Positions 40,307 to 48,909 of a stretch of DNA of 64,000 nt are shown here, one piece after another (position 1 is the first letter of the stretch; every line of letters begins with the position of its first letter). The position numbers were made by a program, and so were the translations under genes. The stretch is taken from positions 248,001-312,000 of the forward strand of contig NZ_AGQV01000001.1 of assembly GCF_000234355.1 (NCBI RefSeq), written 5' to 3'. The notes under the pieces are model-generated. The model was not told the origin of the DNA and did no database searches. It saw only the letters and a program-made list of their open reading frames with translations. The DNA comes from Gluconobacter morbifer G707 (GTDB lineage Bacteria > Pseudomonadota > Alphaproteobacteria > Acetobacterales > Acetobacteraceae).

Positions 40307-41461
40307 TCAGACGCGCGGAAGCATATCCCGCGCAATGAAGAGAAGTGCCATGCCGCTGCCATCGAGCGTCTGATCCACGAGTTCGGAGCGGAGGGGGAAG
40401 TCTGCGGCCGGGCTGATGGCCAGCAGATCGGTGCCGCGGCTGACAAAATCCTGAACCAGGCGGGTCATGGCCTGCGGGTCTGATGGCAGGTCATGCCAGC
40501 CGGTACAGGTGGCCCGCTTCAGCCAGGGGGCCAACACGGTTTCCATGGATGCCCGGTCTTCGGGGTGCGTTATCAGGGCGATGGAGCGGCCAATATCGCT
40601 CTGACGCCCCGCGGGGAGCAGGAGAGTCGGGCGGCTGGCCCGCAGAAGGGAAGCGGCCAGACGACGCCGGGCATAGTGGGTGTGAACGGGGTCATGTTCC
40701 AGCACGACCAGGCCGGCCGTACGGGCCTGTTCCTGCACGACGGTGGATCCGTCGCCCCGGACCTCCGTCCATGAAACGGGCTGTCCTGCCGGGCGCAGCC
40801 GCTCTTTCAGGCTTTCGCTCCACAGACTGTTCTGCTGCTTCATGGTTCGCAGCCGGGCCGGGGAGAGAATGGAACTGAAGGATTCCGTGTTGTCCAGAAG
40901 AGGGTTGTCTTCCAGTGGCGTGTCGAAAGCCAACAGACCGATCGGGCTTTGTGGTCCTACAAGGGTCCGCACGGAGCGCAGGGTACCTTCTGCCGTCCGG
41001 GGATCGCGAAGCGCCAGTACCGTGGGGACCGGAGACGTGAGGGAAGCGGTGCGGGTGGGCGATGCCAGGCCGGAAACACGGGTCTGGGTCGCGAGGGCGT
41101 ATCCTGCCATGGCGGCGAGAAGGCAGGCCATGACGGAGAGGACGATATTCCCGAACGCGGCGGCCGGGCGTCCATCCCGCAGGAGATCGAGGGTCTGCTG
41201 TGTGAAGGAGGAGAAGGTCGTGAAACCACCGCAGATTCCGACCATCAGGAAGGCCCGCAGTTCCGGTGAACCTGCGAAGCGGCTGTCCGCCGCCGTCAGC
41301 ATTCCGACATAGGCAATGATGAACGAACCGACGATGTTGATGAAGACTGTTGGCCAGGGAAGGGCTGATCCCGTCACCGGGGCCAGAACGGCGCCGACCC
41401 ATGCGCGCCCGACGCTTCCGATGGCGCCCCCAAGCGCAATCAGCAGATAGGTCTGTAGCAT
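40307..41461 (-). CDS. crcB: CrcB/FluC fluoride channel fused to Usp-like domains
   Basis: 384 residues. The first ~127 are a complete four-helix CrcB: IALGGAIGSVGRAWVGAVLA, PTVFINIVGSFIIAYVGML and GICGGFTTFSSFTQQTL, then a final helix ending MAGYALATQ. CrcB dimers expel fluoride. Instead of ending there, about 250 more residues follow: VPTVLALRDPRTAEGTLRSV, then VLEHDPVHTHYARRRLAASL, LRASRPTLLLPAGRQ, and a second similar unit SIALITHPEDRASMETVLAP to LLAISPAADFP. This strand-helix pattern with RPTLLLP resembles universal stress protein domains. No frameshift is needed. A fluoride riboswitch was sought upstream and not seen. Confidence 0.85.
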   Translation of the reverse strand: MLQTYLLIALGGAIGSVGRAWVGAVLAPVTGSALPWPTVFINIVGSFIIAYVGMLTAADSRFAGSPELRAFLMVGICGGFTTFSSFTQQTLDLLRDGRPAAAFGNIVLSVMACLLAAMAGYALATQTRVSGLASPTRTASLTSPVPTVLALRDPRTAEGTLRSVRTLVGPQSPIGLLAFDTPLEDNPLLDNTESFSSILSPARLRTMKQQNSLWSESLKERLRPAGQPVSWTEVRGDGSTVVQEQARTAGLVVLEHDPVHTHYARRRLAASLLRASRPTLLLPAGRQSDIGRSIALITHPEDRASMETVLAPWLKRATCTGWHDLPSDPQAMTRLVQDFVSRGTDLLAISPAADFPLRSELVDQTLDGSGMALLFIARDMLPRV

Positions 41462-43656: not shown

Positions 43657-44433
43657 ATGAAGGGGTGTCCGGAACTGGCTGATCTGGTGCTTCAGGCAAG
43701 TGGAATCGTCAAATCCTTTGGAGGGAACGAAGTCCTGCGCGGTCTGTCGCTCGATGTGGAGCGCGGGGAACTGATTTCGATTATCGGTCCGTCCGGCTGC
43801 GGCAAGTCCACCTTTCTGCGCTGTCTCAATTTTCTGGAGCATCCTGATGCCGGGACCGTGCGGATCGAGGATGTGACCGTTTCCTGTACCGGCGGGCACT
43901 GGACCCGGGCGAACGAGACACAGGCCCATCATCTGCGCGCGCATGTGGGGATGGTGTTCCAGGCCTTTAACCTCTTTCCCCATCGCACGGTTCTCGACAA
44001 CGTCACGATGGCGCCCATGCACGTCAAGGGCGTCTCGCGGGAGGAGGCACAGGCCGTCGCCTGTGAGCTGCTGACGAAAGTCGGGCTTGGCGGCACCAAG
44101 GAGCGGTATCCCGACAGTCTGTCGGGGGGGCAGAAGCAGCGCGCGGCCATTGCCCGGGCGCTCGCCATGAAGCCATCCGTCATGCTGTATGACGAACCGA
44201 CCTCGGCGCTTGACCCGGAACTTTCGGAGGAGGTGCTGTCCGTGATGCGTGCACTCGACATCGAAGGCATGACCCAGATCGTTGTGACGCATGACATGCG
44301 CTTCGCCCGGGCGGCTTCCGACCGGGTGCTGTATGTGGAGGGCGGGGAAGTCGTGGAGAGTGGGGATCCTGACCTCATGTTCGCCAACCCGAAGGAGGGG
44401 CGCACGCGGCGCTTCCTGCGGACGCTGCTGTGA
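43657..44433 (+). CDS. Polar amino-acid ABC importer ATPase (GlnQ/HisP type)
   Basis: About 258 residues: FGGNEVLRGLSLDVERGE, Walker A IGPSGCGKSTFLRCLNFL, Q-loop MVFQAFNLFPHRTVLDNVT, signature LSGGQKQRAAIARALA, Walker B VMLYDEPTSALDPEL and the switch VVTHDMRFARAASD. These are hallmarks of PAAT-family ATPases. The next gene, a fused binding protein/permease, overlaps its stop as TGATG, making a two-gene importer. The start is uncertain: 43615, 43642 and 43657 are in frame and none has a clear ribosome site. Confidence 0.9.
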   Translation: MKGCPELADLVLQASGIVKSFGGNEVLRGLSLDVERGELISIIGPSGCGKSTFLRCLNFLEHPDAGTVRIEDVTVSCTGGHWTRANETQAHHLRAHVGMVFQAFNLFPHRTVLDNVTMAPMHVKGVSREEAQAVACELLTKVGLGGTKERYPDSLSGGQKQRAAIARALAMKPSVMLYDEPTSALDPELSEEVLSVMRALDIEGMTQIVVTHDMRFARAASDRVLYVEGGEVVESGDPDLMFANPKEGRTRRFLRTLL

Positions 44434-45998
44434 TGAAATATCTTCCCGTGCTTTTCGTCCTGCTGGCTGCTGTGCTGGTAACACCCCTGCACGCGCAGTC
44501 TCCGGCTGTTTCCGCCTCCACAGTCGTTGTTCCCGGCGCGCAGAATGCAACGGATCTGCCCTGGGCCTCGGACGGTGAGGCCAATGTTCCTTATGTTTTC
44601 CATGATCCGGCGCATGAATCGCGTCTGACCGGTTTCGAGTATGAGCTGGTCAATGCCATTGCCGAACGCCTGCACCGCAAGGCGCGCTTCATCCAGAATG
44701 ACTGGGACGGACTGATCCCCGGCCTTTCCCGCGGCATGTACAGCATGGTTCTGGATGGCATCGAGATGACGCCGGAGCACAAGGCTGCCGTCCTGTTCTC
44801 CCGTCCGTATTACGTGACGAGCGAACGGATCATCCTGCGCAAGGATGAAAACGGCCTCGACACGCTGGAGGCCCTGCGCGGGCATATTGTCGGAACGATC
44901 AAGGATACGATGGCCGAGCGGATGCTGCGCCGGCAGGGTGATTCCACCATCCGGTCCTATGAGGAAGAGACGAATGCGTTCTCGGATCTGCGGAACGGCC
45001 GCCTTGACGCCATCCTGCTTGATGCGCCGATCGCCCTTTATTACGGCAGCATCTCCAGTGACATGAAACTGGTCGGCGCGCCGATCGGGAGCATGGAATA
45101 CGGCATTGCGTTTTCGCCGGACAGCCGTGCCCTGCGCGATCAGGTGGATGGCGTGCTGGGTGATCTGATCCATGACGGGACGCTTCATCGCATTCTGGCG
45201 CGATGGAATCTGTGGACGCCCCTGATGGCGAACTATACTGGCGATACCAGTCAGCCGGATATCGTGCCGACGGAATGGAACCGGTATCGGGACGCCATGG
45301 CGGATACGACCGGCAATGGCTGGCGGCCGCTCCTGCATCGTTATGTCAGTTTCCTGCCACTGATTGGCCGGGCCGCGCTGATGACGCTGGCCGTCTCGGC
45401 TCTGGCCATGGTTCTGGCCGTGGCGCTGGGTCTGCTGCTGGCGCTATCCCGCCATTACGGTGCGGCTCCGCTGCGGATTCTGGCGGGGATTTATGTCGAA
45501 GTGGTGCGCGGAACACCGCTGCTGATTCAGGTGCTGTTCATTTTCTATGGTCTGCCGGCGTTCGGCATCCGGCTGTCGCCTTTCATGGCGGGTGTTCTTT
45601 CGCTCGGCCTGAACTATGCCGCCTATGAAGCCGAGAACTACCGCGCCGGGCTTCTTTCCGTGCCGCGCGGACAGATGGAAGCAGCCATCGCCCTGAACAT
45701 GACGCATTTTCAGGCGCTGCGGCTGGTCATCGTGCCGCAGGCCTTCCGGACGGTCGTTCCCGTCATGACGAACGACTTCATTTCGCTTTTGAAGGACAGT
45801 TCGCTCGTGTCCGTCATTACCCTGACGGAACTCAGCCAGACTTATGTGCGCCTGTCATCCACCTATTACGACTATTTCGGGACGGGCCTGATGGTTGGTG
45901 CGGCCTATCTGCTGCTGGGCCTGCCTTTCGTGCGCCTTGCCCGCATGGCGGAACGGCGCCTCGGGCGCGGAATGGGTGGCCATATCGGTCATCACTGA
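44433..45998 (+). CDS. Fused substrate-binding protein and permease of an amino-acid ABC importer
   Basis: 521 residues. Signal KYLPVLFVLLAAVLVTPLHA, then a bilobed SBP_bac_3 domain (about 45-285: LTGFEYELVNAIAERLHRKA, FIQNDWDGLIPGLSRGMYSM, FSRPYYVTSERIILR, RLDAILLDAPIALYY), then a HisM/GlnP permease (about 310-515: LLALSRHYGAAPLRILAGIY, VEVVRGTPLLIQVLFIFYGL) with EAA-like loop VPRGQMEAAIALNMT. Tethering the receptor to the channel removes the free periplasmic binding protein; two chains per transporter would give two receptors. Substrate probably a polar amino acid, unproven. Confidence 0.92.
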   Translation: MKYLPVLFVLLAAVLVTPLHAQSPAVSASTVVVPGAQNATDLPWASDGEANVPYVFHDPAHESRLTGFEYELVNAIAERLHRKARFIQNDWDGLIPGLSRGMYSMVLDGIEMTPEHKAAVLFSRPYYVTSERIILRKDENGLDTLEALRGHIVGTIKDTMAERMLRRQGDSTIRSYEEETNAFSDLRNGRLDAILLDAPIALYYGSISSDMKLVGAPIGSMEYGIAFSPDSRALRDQVDGVLGDLIHDGTLHRILARWNLWTPLMANYTGDTSQPDIVPTEWNRYRDAMADTTGNGWRPLLHRYVSFLPLIGRAALMTLAVSALAMVLAVALGLLLALSRHYGAAPLRILAGIYVEVVRGTPLLIQVLFIFYGLPAFGIRLSPFMAGVLSLGLNYAAYEAENYRAGLLSVPRGQMEAAIALNMTHFQALRLVIVPQAFRTVVPVMTNDFISLLKDSSLVSVITLTELSQTYVRLSSTYYDYFGTGLMVGAAYLLLGLPFVRLARMAERRLGRGMGGHIGHH

Positions 45999-46077: not shown

Positions 46078-47022
46078 TCAGCTTGGGCGCGGGGCCGAAG
46101 GGTCCATGGTGAGGGAGGGGGACAGGGTTTGCGGATCGAGCGTCCCGTCAAAACCCCGACGCAGGACCGTACTCCAGCGCACCATCCAGCGATCCAGATC
46201 CCCGATGAAGCGGGCAGCATCGGGATTGCTGTGGATGGCGGTCTTGTTCCAGTACTGGGGCGGAGCCAGAAGCTGGCGCGAGCCTTCCTCGATGGGGGCG
46301 ACCAGTGTTTCCACGGTCTCGATATTCACGCTGTCCTTGCTTTGGAACGCAGCATGATACCAGCCGACATTGATCATCAGCGTCGGGATGGGGAAGCCGA
46401 GGGTCCGCATCCGGTTGAAGGCGGCGGTAATGAACGGATCGGTGCTGACCGTCTTGTTCGCCAGCACGGCATTGCTGGTATAGCTGCATTCCTGCGATAC
46501 GCCGGGCTTTTCGACGATATGGGAAGCATAGTCCCGGTCATCATGGCACGGCGTTTCGAGTTGCTCCGCAAAGTCGGCGGACAGAGGCTGCTGCGTCGCA
46601 CGCGCGACGATCACGCCAGAGACGACGCCCCGGTCCGTCCGGGCCAGGACCTGTTGTGACAGTTCGCCCTTCGGCCCGCTCCGGGCTGTCAGGATCGGGT
46701 GCCAGTCACCGGCCGGAAGCGGTAGGATGCGACCCGCAATGGTCAGGCTGCCACGCTCCGTAATGCCCGGATCGGGGATGCCGACCTGATCTGCGGGGCT
46801 GTCGGGGGCATTGCCACCCGGACCGTTCGGTCCGGGACCGCCTGGGCCCTGCGGTCCGGAAGCGGACGGATGCTGGCCCGGAAGATGACCGGGGAGCCAC
46901 GGCATGGCCTTTTTCAGGGCAGGCGTGGGGTAGAACGCCGCCAGTCCCAGCGCACCCACCGTCATGCAGAGGCTGGTGCGCCAGAGGGGCGCGCGCCGCC
47001 AGAGTCGTCCAAATGCCGTCAT
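46078..47022 (-). CDS. Single-pass membrane protein with Pro/Gly linker, third gene of the AAA+ operon
   Basis: 314 residues: Arg-rich start (GRLWRRAPLWR), one membrane helix (TSLCMTVGALGLAAFYPTPA, about 16-34), a linker rich in Gly/Pro (about 46-80, PQGPGGPGPNGPGGNAPDSP) and a roughly 230-residue domain predicted outside the cytoplasm: GRILPLPAGDWHPILTARSG, VVSGVIVARATQQPL, LETPCHDDRDYASHIVEK and LGFPIPTLMINVGWYHAAFQ. Two Cys (about 154 and 174) could form a disulfide. No family recognised. It starts three bases after the AAA+ gene ends, so they are one unit. Confidence 0.7.
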   Translation of the reverse strand: MTAFGRLWRRAPLWRTSLCMTVGALGLAAFYPTPALKKAMPWLPGHLPGQHPSASGPQGPGGPGPNGPGGNAPDSPADQVGIPDPGITERGSLTIAGRILPLPAGDWHPILTARSGPKGELSQQVLARTDRGVVSGVIVARATQQPLSADFAEQLETPCHDDRDYASHIVEKPGVSQECSYTSNAVLANKTVSTDPFITAAFNRMRTLGFPIPTLMINVGWYHAAFQSKDSVNIETVETLVAPIEEGSRQLLAPPQYWNKTAIHSNPDAARFIGDLDRWMVRWSTVLRRGFDGTLDPQTLSPSLTMDPSAPRPS

Positions 47023-47025
47023 GAA

Positions 47026-48297
47026 CTAGTGGCTCATCCGTCCGAGCTGCGCCTCGGTATCGCTGGCGATCTCCGCCACCACGCCGTCGTCCCCCACAAC
47101 GAGACGCACGCGCTTGGCGCCCTGCTGCCGGGCAATGATAAGGCTTTCGCTGACCATATCCTCGATGGAGCGCACAAGGTCGCGCGCGCTGGCGCCGGTG
47201 CCGAGGTTCTTCTGTCTCTGCATGACCTGGAACAGCACGACAGGATCGATGCCGCCGGTTTCCACATGCAGGCCATATCCTTCGATCATGGCCTCGATTT
47301 CCAGTGCGGCCACCCGCGCCAGATCCAGTCCACGCAGGGCCCGGAACACGAAGATCCGGTCCAGACGGTTCAGCACTTCCGGTGCGAAGCCGGACTTGCG
47401 CAGGGCTTCGACCGACTCGGCGCGCATTTTCTCGGGCTCGTTCTCCAGCCGGTCCGCAATCTCGGTCAGGGCTTCGGTCGCGACGTTGGAGGTCAGCATG
47501 AAAATGGCGCGCGTCGTGGAAACCTGCTCGCCGGTGGAGGCTTCTGTGACGTGGCCGTCGTTCCAGGCGGTCAGGAATTTCTTGAAAACGTCCGGATGGG
47601 CTTTCTCGATTTCGTCGAGGAGGACCACGGCGTCCGGATGTTCCTTGAGGCCTCCGGTCAGTTTGCCGAAGGTATCCGAGCCGACATACCCTTTCGGAGA
47701 GCCGAAAAGCTGTGTCGCGGCATGGGGGCTCGACATCTGCGTCATGTCGAAATGCAGCAGGGGCCGGTCCATCTGTTTGGAGATCTGTTTGGCCAGATAG
47801 GTCTTGCCGGTTCCCGGAGGGCCGGCGAGCAGAAAGATGCCGACCGGTTTGCCGCGGACCTGAAGCGCGAGGCGGCGGCGCAACTGCTGGGCAATGTCCT
47901 CGCAGACGCTGTCCTGCCCGATGACACGGGCGCGCAGTGAAGCCGCCAGTTCCTCGGCGTCGATGACGGCGTCACGCTGTTCGCGGGCCATGAGTTCCTC
48001 AAGGGCTCCGCGGTTTGTCAGGCGGCTGAGAACGTCCATGATGAGACCTTTCCTGCGGCGCAGTCCGCGACGCGCCAGTTTTTCCGCTGAAACTTCATAT
48101 GCCAGACCGGAAACGGTCAGCAACGCTCCAATGCCCGCAAGCGGAAGATAGAACCGCCGGCCCCATTCAAGGGCAGCCCAGAACCCGTCGAGAGACAGGT
48201 GCAGCATGACCGCGACCTGAATGACTGCAAGGATCAGGAACGCCGCCATCATCAGGGGCATGGCCCGGTTGAGCATGGGAACGATGGACTTGAACAC
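47026..48297 (-). CDS. Membrane-anchored single-ring Clp-type AAA+ ATPase
   Basis: 423 residues. Two N-terminal membrane helices (about 12-34 and 50-68), a basic stretch, then one AAA+ module of the ClpB/ClpA second-ring type: Walker A AGPPGTGKT at 158-166, pore loop KGYVGSDTF with Tyr204, Walker B AVVLLDEIEKAH at 223-234, sensor-1 LTSNVA, Arg-finger region PEVLNRLDRIFVF and a sensor-2-like ASARDLVRSIEDM with C-terminal small domain. No N-domain, no first ring, no coiled-coil middle domain, no I/L-G-F/L tripeptide for ClpP docking. A threading unfoldase or remodeller at the cytoplasmic face is likely. It sits between two single-pass proteins. Confidence 0.85.
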   Translation of the reverse strand: MFKSIVPMLNRAMPLMMAAFLILAVIQVAVMLHLSLDGFWAALEWGRRFYLPLAGIGALLTVSGLAYEVSAEKLARRGLRRRKGLIMDVLSRLTNRGALEELMAREQRDAVIDAEELAASLRARVIGQDSVCEDIAQQLRRRLALQVRGKPVGIFLLAGPPGTGKTYLAKQISKQMDRPLLHFDMTQMSSPHAATQLFGSPKGYVGSDTFGKLTGGLKEHPDAVVLLDEIEKAHPDVFKKFLTAWNDGHVTEASTGEQVSTTRAIFMLTSNVATEALTEIADRLENEPEKMRAESVEALRKSGFAPEVLNRLDRIFVFRALRGLDLARVAALEIEAMIEGYGLHVETGGIDPVVLFQVMQRQKNLGTGASARDLVRSIEDMVSESLIIARQQGAKRVRLVVGDDGVVAEIASDTEAQLGRMSH

Positions 48298-48309
48298 CGG
48301 GCGGGTTCC

Positions 48310-48909
48310 TTACTGCACGATCACATTGAGCAGGATGCGCTGGTCAAGCGCCGTCAGACTGGGCAGCACTTCCGGTCCAAGCGCGGTCAGGGCGCCAATG
48401 GTCAGGGCCGGGGCGTGGGGCATTGTTACAGGTGCGATGGTGATCTGGCCAGCCTCTGCAATAGGCAGGACCAGATGCTGGAACTTGCCGGTCAGCACCA
48501 CCCGCTGTGTCAGGCCCGAGACCGTGACGTCGATGGTCTGTCCAACCTGTCCCGCCGCATCGAGGACCGGCATTTCCACCAGCCGCATCTCCCCCCGCTT
48601 TACGGCCGCCAGGATACGGGCCTGTTCATCCGCGCTGAAGCCCGTGCGGGCCAGCGCGGTACGGGCTTTGGCGGGAGGAAGCATGGAGAGCTGGGCCGCC
48701 GCAGTCAGGGTCGGTGTGTTGCTGGCGGGGGCATTATGTCCCGGTGGCGCCGGGGCGGGCGCGGGAGAAGGTGCGCCATGCGAATAAAAAAAGGCGCCGG
48801 CACCGACCGTCAGGGCGGCCAGCAGGCCACCGCCTGCCCATGCTGCCTTGCTGTGGCTGGCAGACTCGTCAGGAAGCGGTTGGGGGCGGGGCTCGGGCTG
48901 AGAAGTCAT
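48310..48909 (-). CDS. Single-pass membrane protein with Pro/Ala linker, first gene of the AAA+ operon
   Basis: 199 residues: short Pro-rich cytoplasmic tail, one membrane helix (AAWAGGGLLAALTVGAGAFF, about 22-42), an Ala/Pro linker (SPAPAPAPPGHNAPAS) and an extracytoplasmic domain with a helical hairpin (LSMLPPAKARTALARTGFSA, DEQARILAAVKRGEMRLVEM) followed by beta-rich sequence (QTIDVTVSGLTQRVVLTGKF). No family recognised. It ends 12 bp before the AAA+ gene. A 14-bp palindrome lies 50 bp upstream of the ATG and may be its operator. Confidence 0.7.
   Translation of the reverse strand: MTSQPEPRPQPLPDESASHSKAAWAGGGLLAALTVGAGAFFYSHGAPSPAPAPAPPGHNAPASNTPTLTAAAQLSMLPPAKARTALARTGFSADEQARILAAVKRGEMRLVEMPVLDAAGQVGQTIDVTVSGLTQRVVLTGKFQHLVLPIAEAGQITIAPVTMPHAPALTIGALTALGPEVLPSLTALDQRILLNVIVQ

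What the first reader, a model, noticed from the sequence alone, without database searches (positions are those of the whole stretch)
46078..48909. Membrane-spanning three-protein AAA+ system of unknown purpose
Seen: three tightly packed genes (gaps 12 and 3 bp) for (1) a single-pass protein with Ala/Pro linker and outer domain, (2) a two-helix membrane-anchored single Clp-type AAA+ ring with Walker A/B, pore Tyr204 and sensor motifs, (3) a single-pass protein with Gly/Pro linker and a two-Cys outer domain. Known: Clp second-ring ATPases thread proteins; those feeding ClpP carry an [IL]G[FL] tripeptide, which I do not see. Inference: a cytoplasmic motor pulling on or remodelling a membrane substrate through two extracytoplasmic partners. 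It does not match FtsH (no protease), ClpV (no secretion genes) or MoxR systems. The best candidate for an undescribed machine here.
Basis: partly seen in the sequence, partly recalled or inferred. Interest (0 to 1): 0.85.

Follow-up and report, generated by a model that had tools for sequence, protein, structure and literature searches.

The report
Membrane-anchored Clp-type motor with two partners
Acetic acid bacteria carry a conserved, unnamed three-gene set that looks like a protein-pulling motor sitting in the inner membrane with two partners outside, and some small-genome relatives have repeatedly lost the motor activity together with one partner while keeping the rest.

Summary
Three tight genes encode G1 (48310-48909, single-pass), a Clp-type AAA+ protein with two N-terminal membrane helices (47026-48297) and G3 (46078-47022, single-pass). 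In 92 of 92 loci with this AAA, a G3-type gene follows it on the same strand. In my samples the system is confined to Acetobacteraceae, apart from one Microvirga plasmid pair. G1 and G3 have no significant match in Pfam, NCBIfam, PADLOC or PHROGs, and my searches found no paper on them.

The new result is a split into two modules. In 84 of 84 family genomes with intact motor motifs and a readable G1 position, G1 is present. In 6 of 6 with decayed motifs it is gone, in at least three separate losses. There the AAA protein keeps its membrane helices and G3; in the one pair close enough to test it is under purifying selection. So G1 goes with the ATPase, and G3 with the AAA membrane part, probably through its LWxxAxxWR tail. 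Against this, the Microvirga homologue has intact motifs and no recognised G1.

G3's outer domain most resembles Mog1/PsbP-like proteins, at middling Z. Most likely the ring remodels a membrane or periplasmic client through G1, without ClpP. The client is unknown.

The parts
48310..48909 (-). G1: 199 aa, short tail, one membrane helix, Ala/Pro linker, C-terminal domain that by eye is mostly beta strands and ends on a nearly invariant Gln
   Evidence: in 84 of 84 intact-motor family genomes with a readable flank, absent in 6 of 6 dead-motor genomes
48787..48843 (-). G1 membrane helix (residues 23-41)
   Evidence: hydropathy; tail more positive than the 25 residues after the helix in 50 of 64 aligned G1 proteins, equal in 8; in the window's own G1 the tail is -1, so its orientation is not clear from charge
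47026..48297 (-). AAA: 423 aa, two membrane helices plus one Clp/ClpB-D2-type AAA+ ring
   Evidence: Pfam AAA_2 125.7 bits against a cut-off of 27
48202..48258 (-). AAA membrane helix 1 (residues 14-32)
   Evidence: hydropathy
48097..48153 (-). AAA membrane helix 2 (residues 49-67), followed by a strongly positive stretch
   Evidence: hydropathy and charge
47800..47823 (-). Walker A GPPGTGKT
47680..47691 (-). pore loop GYVG (Tyr204)
47605..47628 (-). Walker B VVLLDEIE
47485..47502 (-). sensor 1 FMLTSN
47359..47382 (-). arginine-finger segment PEVLNRLD
47176..47196 (-). sensor-2 region GASARDL
46078..47022 (-). G3: 314 aa, LWxxAxxWR tail, one membrane helix, Gly/Pro linker modelled with low confidence, outer Mog1/PsbP-like domain with two invariant Cys
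46978..47004 (-). G3 LWxxAxxWR motif (residues 7-15), inferred dock to the AAA protein
   Evidence: 92 of 93 G3-type proteins; kept in the 64-aa Microvirga mini-G3
46141..46755 (-). G3 outer domain (residues 90-294)
   Evidence: model with mean pLDDT 82.2 for the whole protein; best structural rows Mog1, then a mixed list with CyanoP, DcrB, PsbP

Best explanation
It is a lineage-specific inner-membrane remodelling machine with two modules. Shown here by sequence: the AAA protein is a single Clp-type ring with two N-terminal hydrophobic helices, intact threading and ATPase motifs and no ClpP-docking tripeptide; within the family G1 is kept only where the motor motifs are intact; the AAA membrane part and G3 are kept even where the motor motifs have decayed. 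Inferred: six AAA subunits form a cytoplasmic ring on a bundle of membrane helices; G3 docks on that bundle by its LWxxAxxWR tail and holds a Mog1/PsbP-like domain outside; G1 is the dedicated adaptor or substrate of the motor, its flexible tail and membrane helix giving the ring something to engage; ATP-driven threading pulls on G1, or on a client that G1 presents, and so remodels or dismantles a membrane or periplasmic complex without degrading it.
For: Intact motifs in 86 of 92 AAA sequences. G1 present in 84 of the 86 (the other two: a contig end, G245, and Microvirga) and in 0 of 6 with dead motifs (Fisher p 1.6e-9 for 84/0 against 0/6, not corrected for kinship; three pairs of AAA frames are identical). 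A whole-genome profile search finds no G1 in those 6 at E<=0.01. At least three separate losses on a 24-genome NusA+InfB tree: G155 beside intact G069, G196/G238 beside intact G140, and G109 with G100/G174. In G140 the motor motifs are intact but G1 is truncated, so G1 decay can come first. After motor death AAA dN/dS is 0.106 over 439 codons, G196 against G238, the only dead pair tested that is not saturated. Identity to the window in the six dead-motor proteins against four intact kin that I chose (G069, G072, G086, G140): helix 1 0.51 v 0.55, helix 2 0.35 v 0.32, Walker A-B 0.38 v 0.90. A Microvirga plasmid has an AAA homologue followed 10 nt later by a 64-aa ORF with only the LWxxAxxWR tail and a helix. 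No ClpP tripeptide in 92 of 92.
Against: No interaction, ATPase activity or phenotype is shown. The Microvirga pair has intact motor motifs and no recognised G1, so G1 is not needed by every homologue. In the dead-motor proteins the linker after the helices (0.38 v 0.66) and the lid (0.46 v 0.74) have also drifted, so only the helices keep their full constraint. G1 and G3 evolve fast (mean pairwise difference 0.66 and 0.63 against 0.24 for AAA over 15 genomes), which suits adaptors but also changing clients. The co-loss rests on three to four events, all in genomes of 1.9-2.4 Mb, where gene decay is common (sizes and, for G109). G3 is itself interrupted in at least two genomes (G308, G165). 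The window's own G1 tail has a net charge of -1, against the expected orientation. G1's structure could not be predicted.
Confidence: 0.45

Rival explanations
1. General membrane-protein dislocase or quality-control factor, working like Msp1 or like FtsH without its protease: the ring extracts many mislocalised or orphan membrane proteins, and G1 is a client adaptor.
For: Two predicted membrane helices then a ring with an aromatic pore loop; no protease motif seen. Msp1 extracts membrane proteins through its pore (PMC7018516, abstract and outline seen).
Against: A general quality-control factor should not depend on one small partner, nor leave a selected dead scaffold with G3. FtsH and Msp1 belong to a different AAA branch (recalled).
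Confidence: 0.25
2. Trans-envelope energy or signal transducer: ATP-driven movement of G1, which has the tail-helix-Pro linker-outer domain layout of TonB or GspB/ExeB (recalled), drives an outer process.
For: Layout of G1 and G3; within the family G1 is tied to the motor.
Against: No outer-membrane or transport gene is constant beside the trio: of 24 neighbourhoods with rimP-nusA, 21 have the amino-acid ABC transporter, and other neighbourhoods have unrelated genes.
Confidence: 0.15
3. Membrane-tethered stress chaperone, a ClpB-like disaggregase for inner-membrane or cytoplasmic aggregates.
For: Closest families are the second rings of ClpB, ClpA and related Clp proteins.
Against: The genome has its own ClpB; one ring only, and two outer partners are not explained.
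Confidence: 0.08
4. Feeder of ClpP or another protease.
For: Clp-type ring.
Against: No tripeptide in 92 of 92; no protease gene in the trio; ClpA, ClpX and HslU are encoded elsewhere.
Confidence: 0.04

Closest known systems
ClpB / ClpA second AAA+ ring (Pfam AAA_2)
   Same: Same ring type, Walker, pore, sensor and arginine-finger motifs; best NCBIfam matches, and ClpE, ClpB and ClpC lead the PDB sequence matches
   Different: One ring, no N domain, two membrane helices, no ClpP tripeptide, two partner genes
FtsH
   Same: Two N-terminal helices, then a cytoplasmic AAA+ ring (FtsH side recalled)
   Different: Different AAA branch (recalled), far below the NCBIfam cut-off, no HEXXH protease motif, very short outer loop
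Msp1/ATAD1
   Same: Membrane-anchored ring without a protease; pore-loop threading
   Different: One helix and classical AAA branch (both recalled); no G1/G3 partners known to me
GspA/GspB (ExeA/ExeB)
   Same: ATPase plus a TonB-like single-pass partner (recalled)
   Different: Not a Clp-type ring (recalled); no Pfam match found for G1
Mog1/PsbP-like domains (CyanoP, DcrB, LpqN, Tsi3)
   Different: 4-9% identity in the Mog1, CyanoP, DcrB, LpqN and Tsi3 rows, middling Z, and no LWxxAxxWR tail known to me

Membership tests
Pfam AAA_2 (Clp-type AAA+) | Profile match over the curated cut-off | tested here: met
   125.7 bits, cut-off 27
ClpB / ClpA / ClpV equivalogs | Whole-protein NCBIfam cut-off; two rings | tested here: not met
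   165.7, 161 and 143.1 bits against 1232.1, 993.15 and 884.95; 423 aa with one ring
ClpP-partner unfoldase | [LIVMP]G[FL] docking tripeptide between sensor 1 and arginine finger (recalled feature) | tested here: not met
   0 of 92 AAA sequences
FtsH | NCBIfam cut-off and HEXXH metalloprotease motif | tested here: not met
   18.9 bits against 600; no HEXXH in the translation (read by eye)
FtsH | Two N-terminal membrane helices before a cytoplasmic ring | tested here: met
   predicted by hydropathy and charge; not measured
Mog1/PsbP-like fold (G3 outer domain) | Same fold | tested here: inconclusive
Msp1-like dislocase | ATP-dependent extraction of membrane proteins | not testable with these tools
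   needs biochemistry
Known anti-phage systems (PADLOC) | Profile matches for the partner genes | tested here: not met
   G1 and G3 no match up to E 1; the AAA protein alone matches ClpB-like models PDC-M37B (84.5 bits) and DolB (69.6 bits) over its ring

The most novel reading that the evidence does not exclude
A new class of trans-membrane AAA+ machine: a Clp-type ring built into the inner membrane that works across it by pulling a dedicated single-pass partner (G1), on a separable scaffold (the AAA membrane bundle plus G3) that has its own function and has survived motor death at least three times as a pseudo-ATPase scaffold.
Probability: 0.3. Interest if true: 0.82.

Novelty: new variant of a known kind. 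Interest (0 to 1): 0.62.

Why it matters
If true, a core envelope function of an industrial bacterial group has been missed, and Clp-type motors, thought of as soluble (recalled), also work from within a membrane. The repeated loss of the motor together with G1, but not G3, is a natural experiment: it says which partner serves the ATPase and which serves the scaffold, and makes both testable by single deletions and point mutants in a tractable, harmless bacterium.

Tried and rejected
ClpP feeder: rejected on the missing tripeptide. ClpB/ClpA/ClpV/FtsH membership: rejected on NCBIfam cut-offs. Defence system: no partner match. Plasmid gene: G1 and G3 had no match in 72,556 plasmid records at E 0.01; of the AAA protein's 20 listed plasmid matches (2,240 records in all) the best is Microvirga at 49% and the others are at 33-38%. 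The phage and E. coli collections and Rfam were not searched. Wider spread: the class-wide search with the Microvirga AAA at E<=1e-55 gave 2 of 385 genomes, both of the same family; the AAA N-terminal profile gave 1 of 200 in the phylum, the own genome; the G1 profile gave 3 of 190 in the class, the own genome and two weak matches to residues 7-123 and 7-96, which I read as linker chance. In several of these searches only some first-look candidates were scored (for example at most 5 and 4 per genome), so misses are possible. The G3 profile matched 13 of 240 in the class, 12 besides the own genome, nearly all to the outer domain. Promoter scan: no minus-strand promoter match in front of G1. PDB sequence profiles: G1 only one match, at E 0.21; G3 none.

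Papers: seven searches were made; those aimed at this gene set listed no paper on this trio, and most subscription papers are not held. Passages were seen in PMC8602642 and PMC12041372 (no AAA or Clp gene named in the main text; supplement look-ups are capped at 0 and were not tried), PMC7716261, PMC3792639 and PMC3989265; in PMC5756330 the terms had no occurrence; PMC7018516 was seen as abstract and outline; all others as search listings only.

I considered a link to RND efflux (by eye, an RND gene and adaptor lie upstream of the trio in L140, and RND genes lie near G3-domain proteins in L146 and L148) and left it as a lead. In one search one G1 row (L160) matched at 19% and was a wrong ORF; it was replaced, and three starts shortened. 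L283 and L284 were fetched but not used, as L054 and L055 cover the same genomes. A G1 in a dead-motor genome could be too diverged for the profile; E up to 0.01 was asked. Motif tests used stop-to-stop frames.

Full report
What is there. The window is from a Gluconobacter-like genome: the closest named relatives are Gluconobacter species at 88-93% identity of the AAA protein. Upstream and divergent lies rimP-nusA-infB (RimP by Pfam; the others recognised by eye); downstream and convergent lies an ORF with an amino-acid-type binding-protein and permease domain.

The AAA protein. It is a single Clp-type ring (Pfam AAA_2, 125.7 bits), nearest to the ClpB and ClpA second rings but far below their curated cut-offs. 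All motor motifs are intact, including pore Tyr204. Two hydrophobic helices lie at 14-32 and 49-67; the net charges (tail +2, loop 0, 25 residues after helix 2 +5) put the ring in the cytoplasm. The same genome encodes ClpB, ClpA, ClpX and HslU elsewhere.

Spread. In the genus the AAA protein is found in 25 of 25 genomes (41 genomes were searched, and none of the 16 outside the genus matched at E<=1e-60). In 299 genomes of the family, AAA is in 72 at E<=1e-55, G3 in 75 at E<=1e-4 and G1 in 67 at E<=1e-3; the G3 and G1 lists include a few weak matches elsewhere. In the class, 2 of 385 genomes matched, both of this family. So it is a family-level system, absent from most sampled genera of that family (25 of 102 genera have it at that threshold). 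The named hits are acetic acid bacteria such as Gluconobacter, Acetobacter, Komagataeibacter, Gluconacetobacter, Asaia and Neokomagataea (best 80 of 124 kept).

Synteny. I compared 36 fetched neighbourhoods and the window. In 24 of these 37 the rimP-nusA genes lie beside the trio, and in 21 of the 24 the ABC transporter lies on the other side. In L130, L131, L136, L140, L141, L144 and L149 the surroundings differ and the trio is still together. Over the 92 AAA loci, G3 follows on the same strand in 92, within 160 nt of the AAA frame; G1 precedes it in 84, within 160 nt or, in G255, inside an over-long reading frame of the AAA gene. Many G1-AAA pairs overlap by 4 bp. Pairwise distances of the three proteins correlate with each other (Spearman 0.84-0.89) and with NusA (0.77-0.84) over 15 genomes, which fits vertical descent but does not prove contact.

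The two modules. I collected 93 loci from 93 different genomes or records: 91 family genomes with the AAA gene, the Microvirga plasmid, and G089, whose contig starts near G3 and lacks AAA. Three pairs of AAA frames are identical. Of 92 AAA sequences 86 have intact Walker A, pore, Walker B and sensor-1 residues and 6 do not (G100, G109, G155, G174, G196, G238). Of the 86, 84 have G1; the other two are G245, where the contig begins at the AAA gene, and Microvirga. Of the 6, none has G1, and a profile search of their whole genomes finds none at E<=0.01. On a 24-genome NusA+InfB tree the six fall in at least three places: G155 next to intact G069 (support 100), G196/G238 next to G140 (support 99-100), and G109 and G100/G174 (relations weakly supported, 29-35).

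What survives motor death. G3 is found in all 92 loci, and LWxxAxxWR in 92 of 93 G3-type proteins (one has LR for LW). In the six dead-motor proteins the membrane helices are as similar to the window as in four intact kin that I chose (helix 1 0.51 v 0.55; helix 2 0.35 v 0.32), while the Walker A-B region falls from 0.90 to 0.38, the linker after the helices from 0.66 to 0.38 and the lid from 0.74 to 0.46. Between G196 and G238, both dead, dN is 0.020 and dS 0.185, ratio 0.106, over 439 codons of the AAA frame, and 0.11 for G3; the other dead pair, G100/G174, is saturated. So in that pair the protein is still under selection without its ATPase motifs. G3 can be lost too: it carries stops in G308 and G165, with raised ratios of 0.65 (G308 against G330) and 0.51 (G086 against G165). 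One search also marks single stops in some other G3 matches, which I did not examine one by one.

Microvirga. A plasmid of Microvirga sp. VF16 carries an AAA homologue, 49% identical over residues 86-395, with two N-terminal helices by eye. Ten nucleotides after its stop, behind GGAGGAG, starts a 64-aa ORF with LWxxAxxWR and a hydrophobic helix and no outer domain (L008:13001-13195); it is not in the PLSDB gene table, which is incomplete. The smallest unit may therefore be the AAA protein plus the G3 tail and helix, which points to that tail as the dock. This homologue has intact motor motifs and no recognised G1; it is the one exception to the G1 rule.

Mechanism. From the above I infer a ring anchored in the membrane with G3 docked as scaffold, and G1 as adaptor or substrate of the motor, used for remodelling and not for ClpP-coupled degradation. 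Threading is inferred from the pore motif and hexamer formation from the family. The orientation of G1 and G3 is inferred from charge and is only a tendency (tail more positive in 50 of 64 G1, equal in 8, and in 51 of 79 G3, equal in 17); the window's own G1 tail goes against it. The client is unknown; I give this account 0.45.

Novelty. I file it as a new variant of a known kind: an AAA_2-type motor in a membrane-bound, partnered form without a family model for its partners or a paper that I could find. [quoted passage not shown]

Noticed in passing
L145, L146, L147, L148, L251-L258: G3's outer domain (xLPLPxGxW) occurs in other, mostly exported-looking proteins of Alphaproteobacteria without the trio; no Pfam domain covers it in those scanned, it is sometimes doubled, and it is joined to DUF2061 in two that were scanned.
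   Followed up: partly
L145:8671-10053: One such domain follows a stretch that by eye looks like a periplasmic ClpP-type fold; Pfam and PDB sequence searches found nothing.
   Followed up: partly
window 48313-48315: G1 ends on Gln at the very C-terminus in at least 90% of 43 aligned relatives, which is unexplained.
   Followed up: no
window 40307-41461: CrcB (fluoride channel family) joined to about 260 further residues without a Pfam match up to E 0.1.
   Followed up: partly
window 44430-45998: Amino-acid-type ABC transporter with binding-protein and permease domains in one ORF.
   Followed up: no
L140, upstream of G1: By eye, an RND pump and its adaptor lie just upstream of the trio in one genus; RND genes also lie near G3-domain proteins in L146 and L148.
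   Followed up: no
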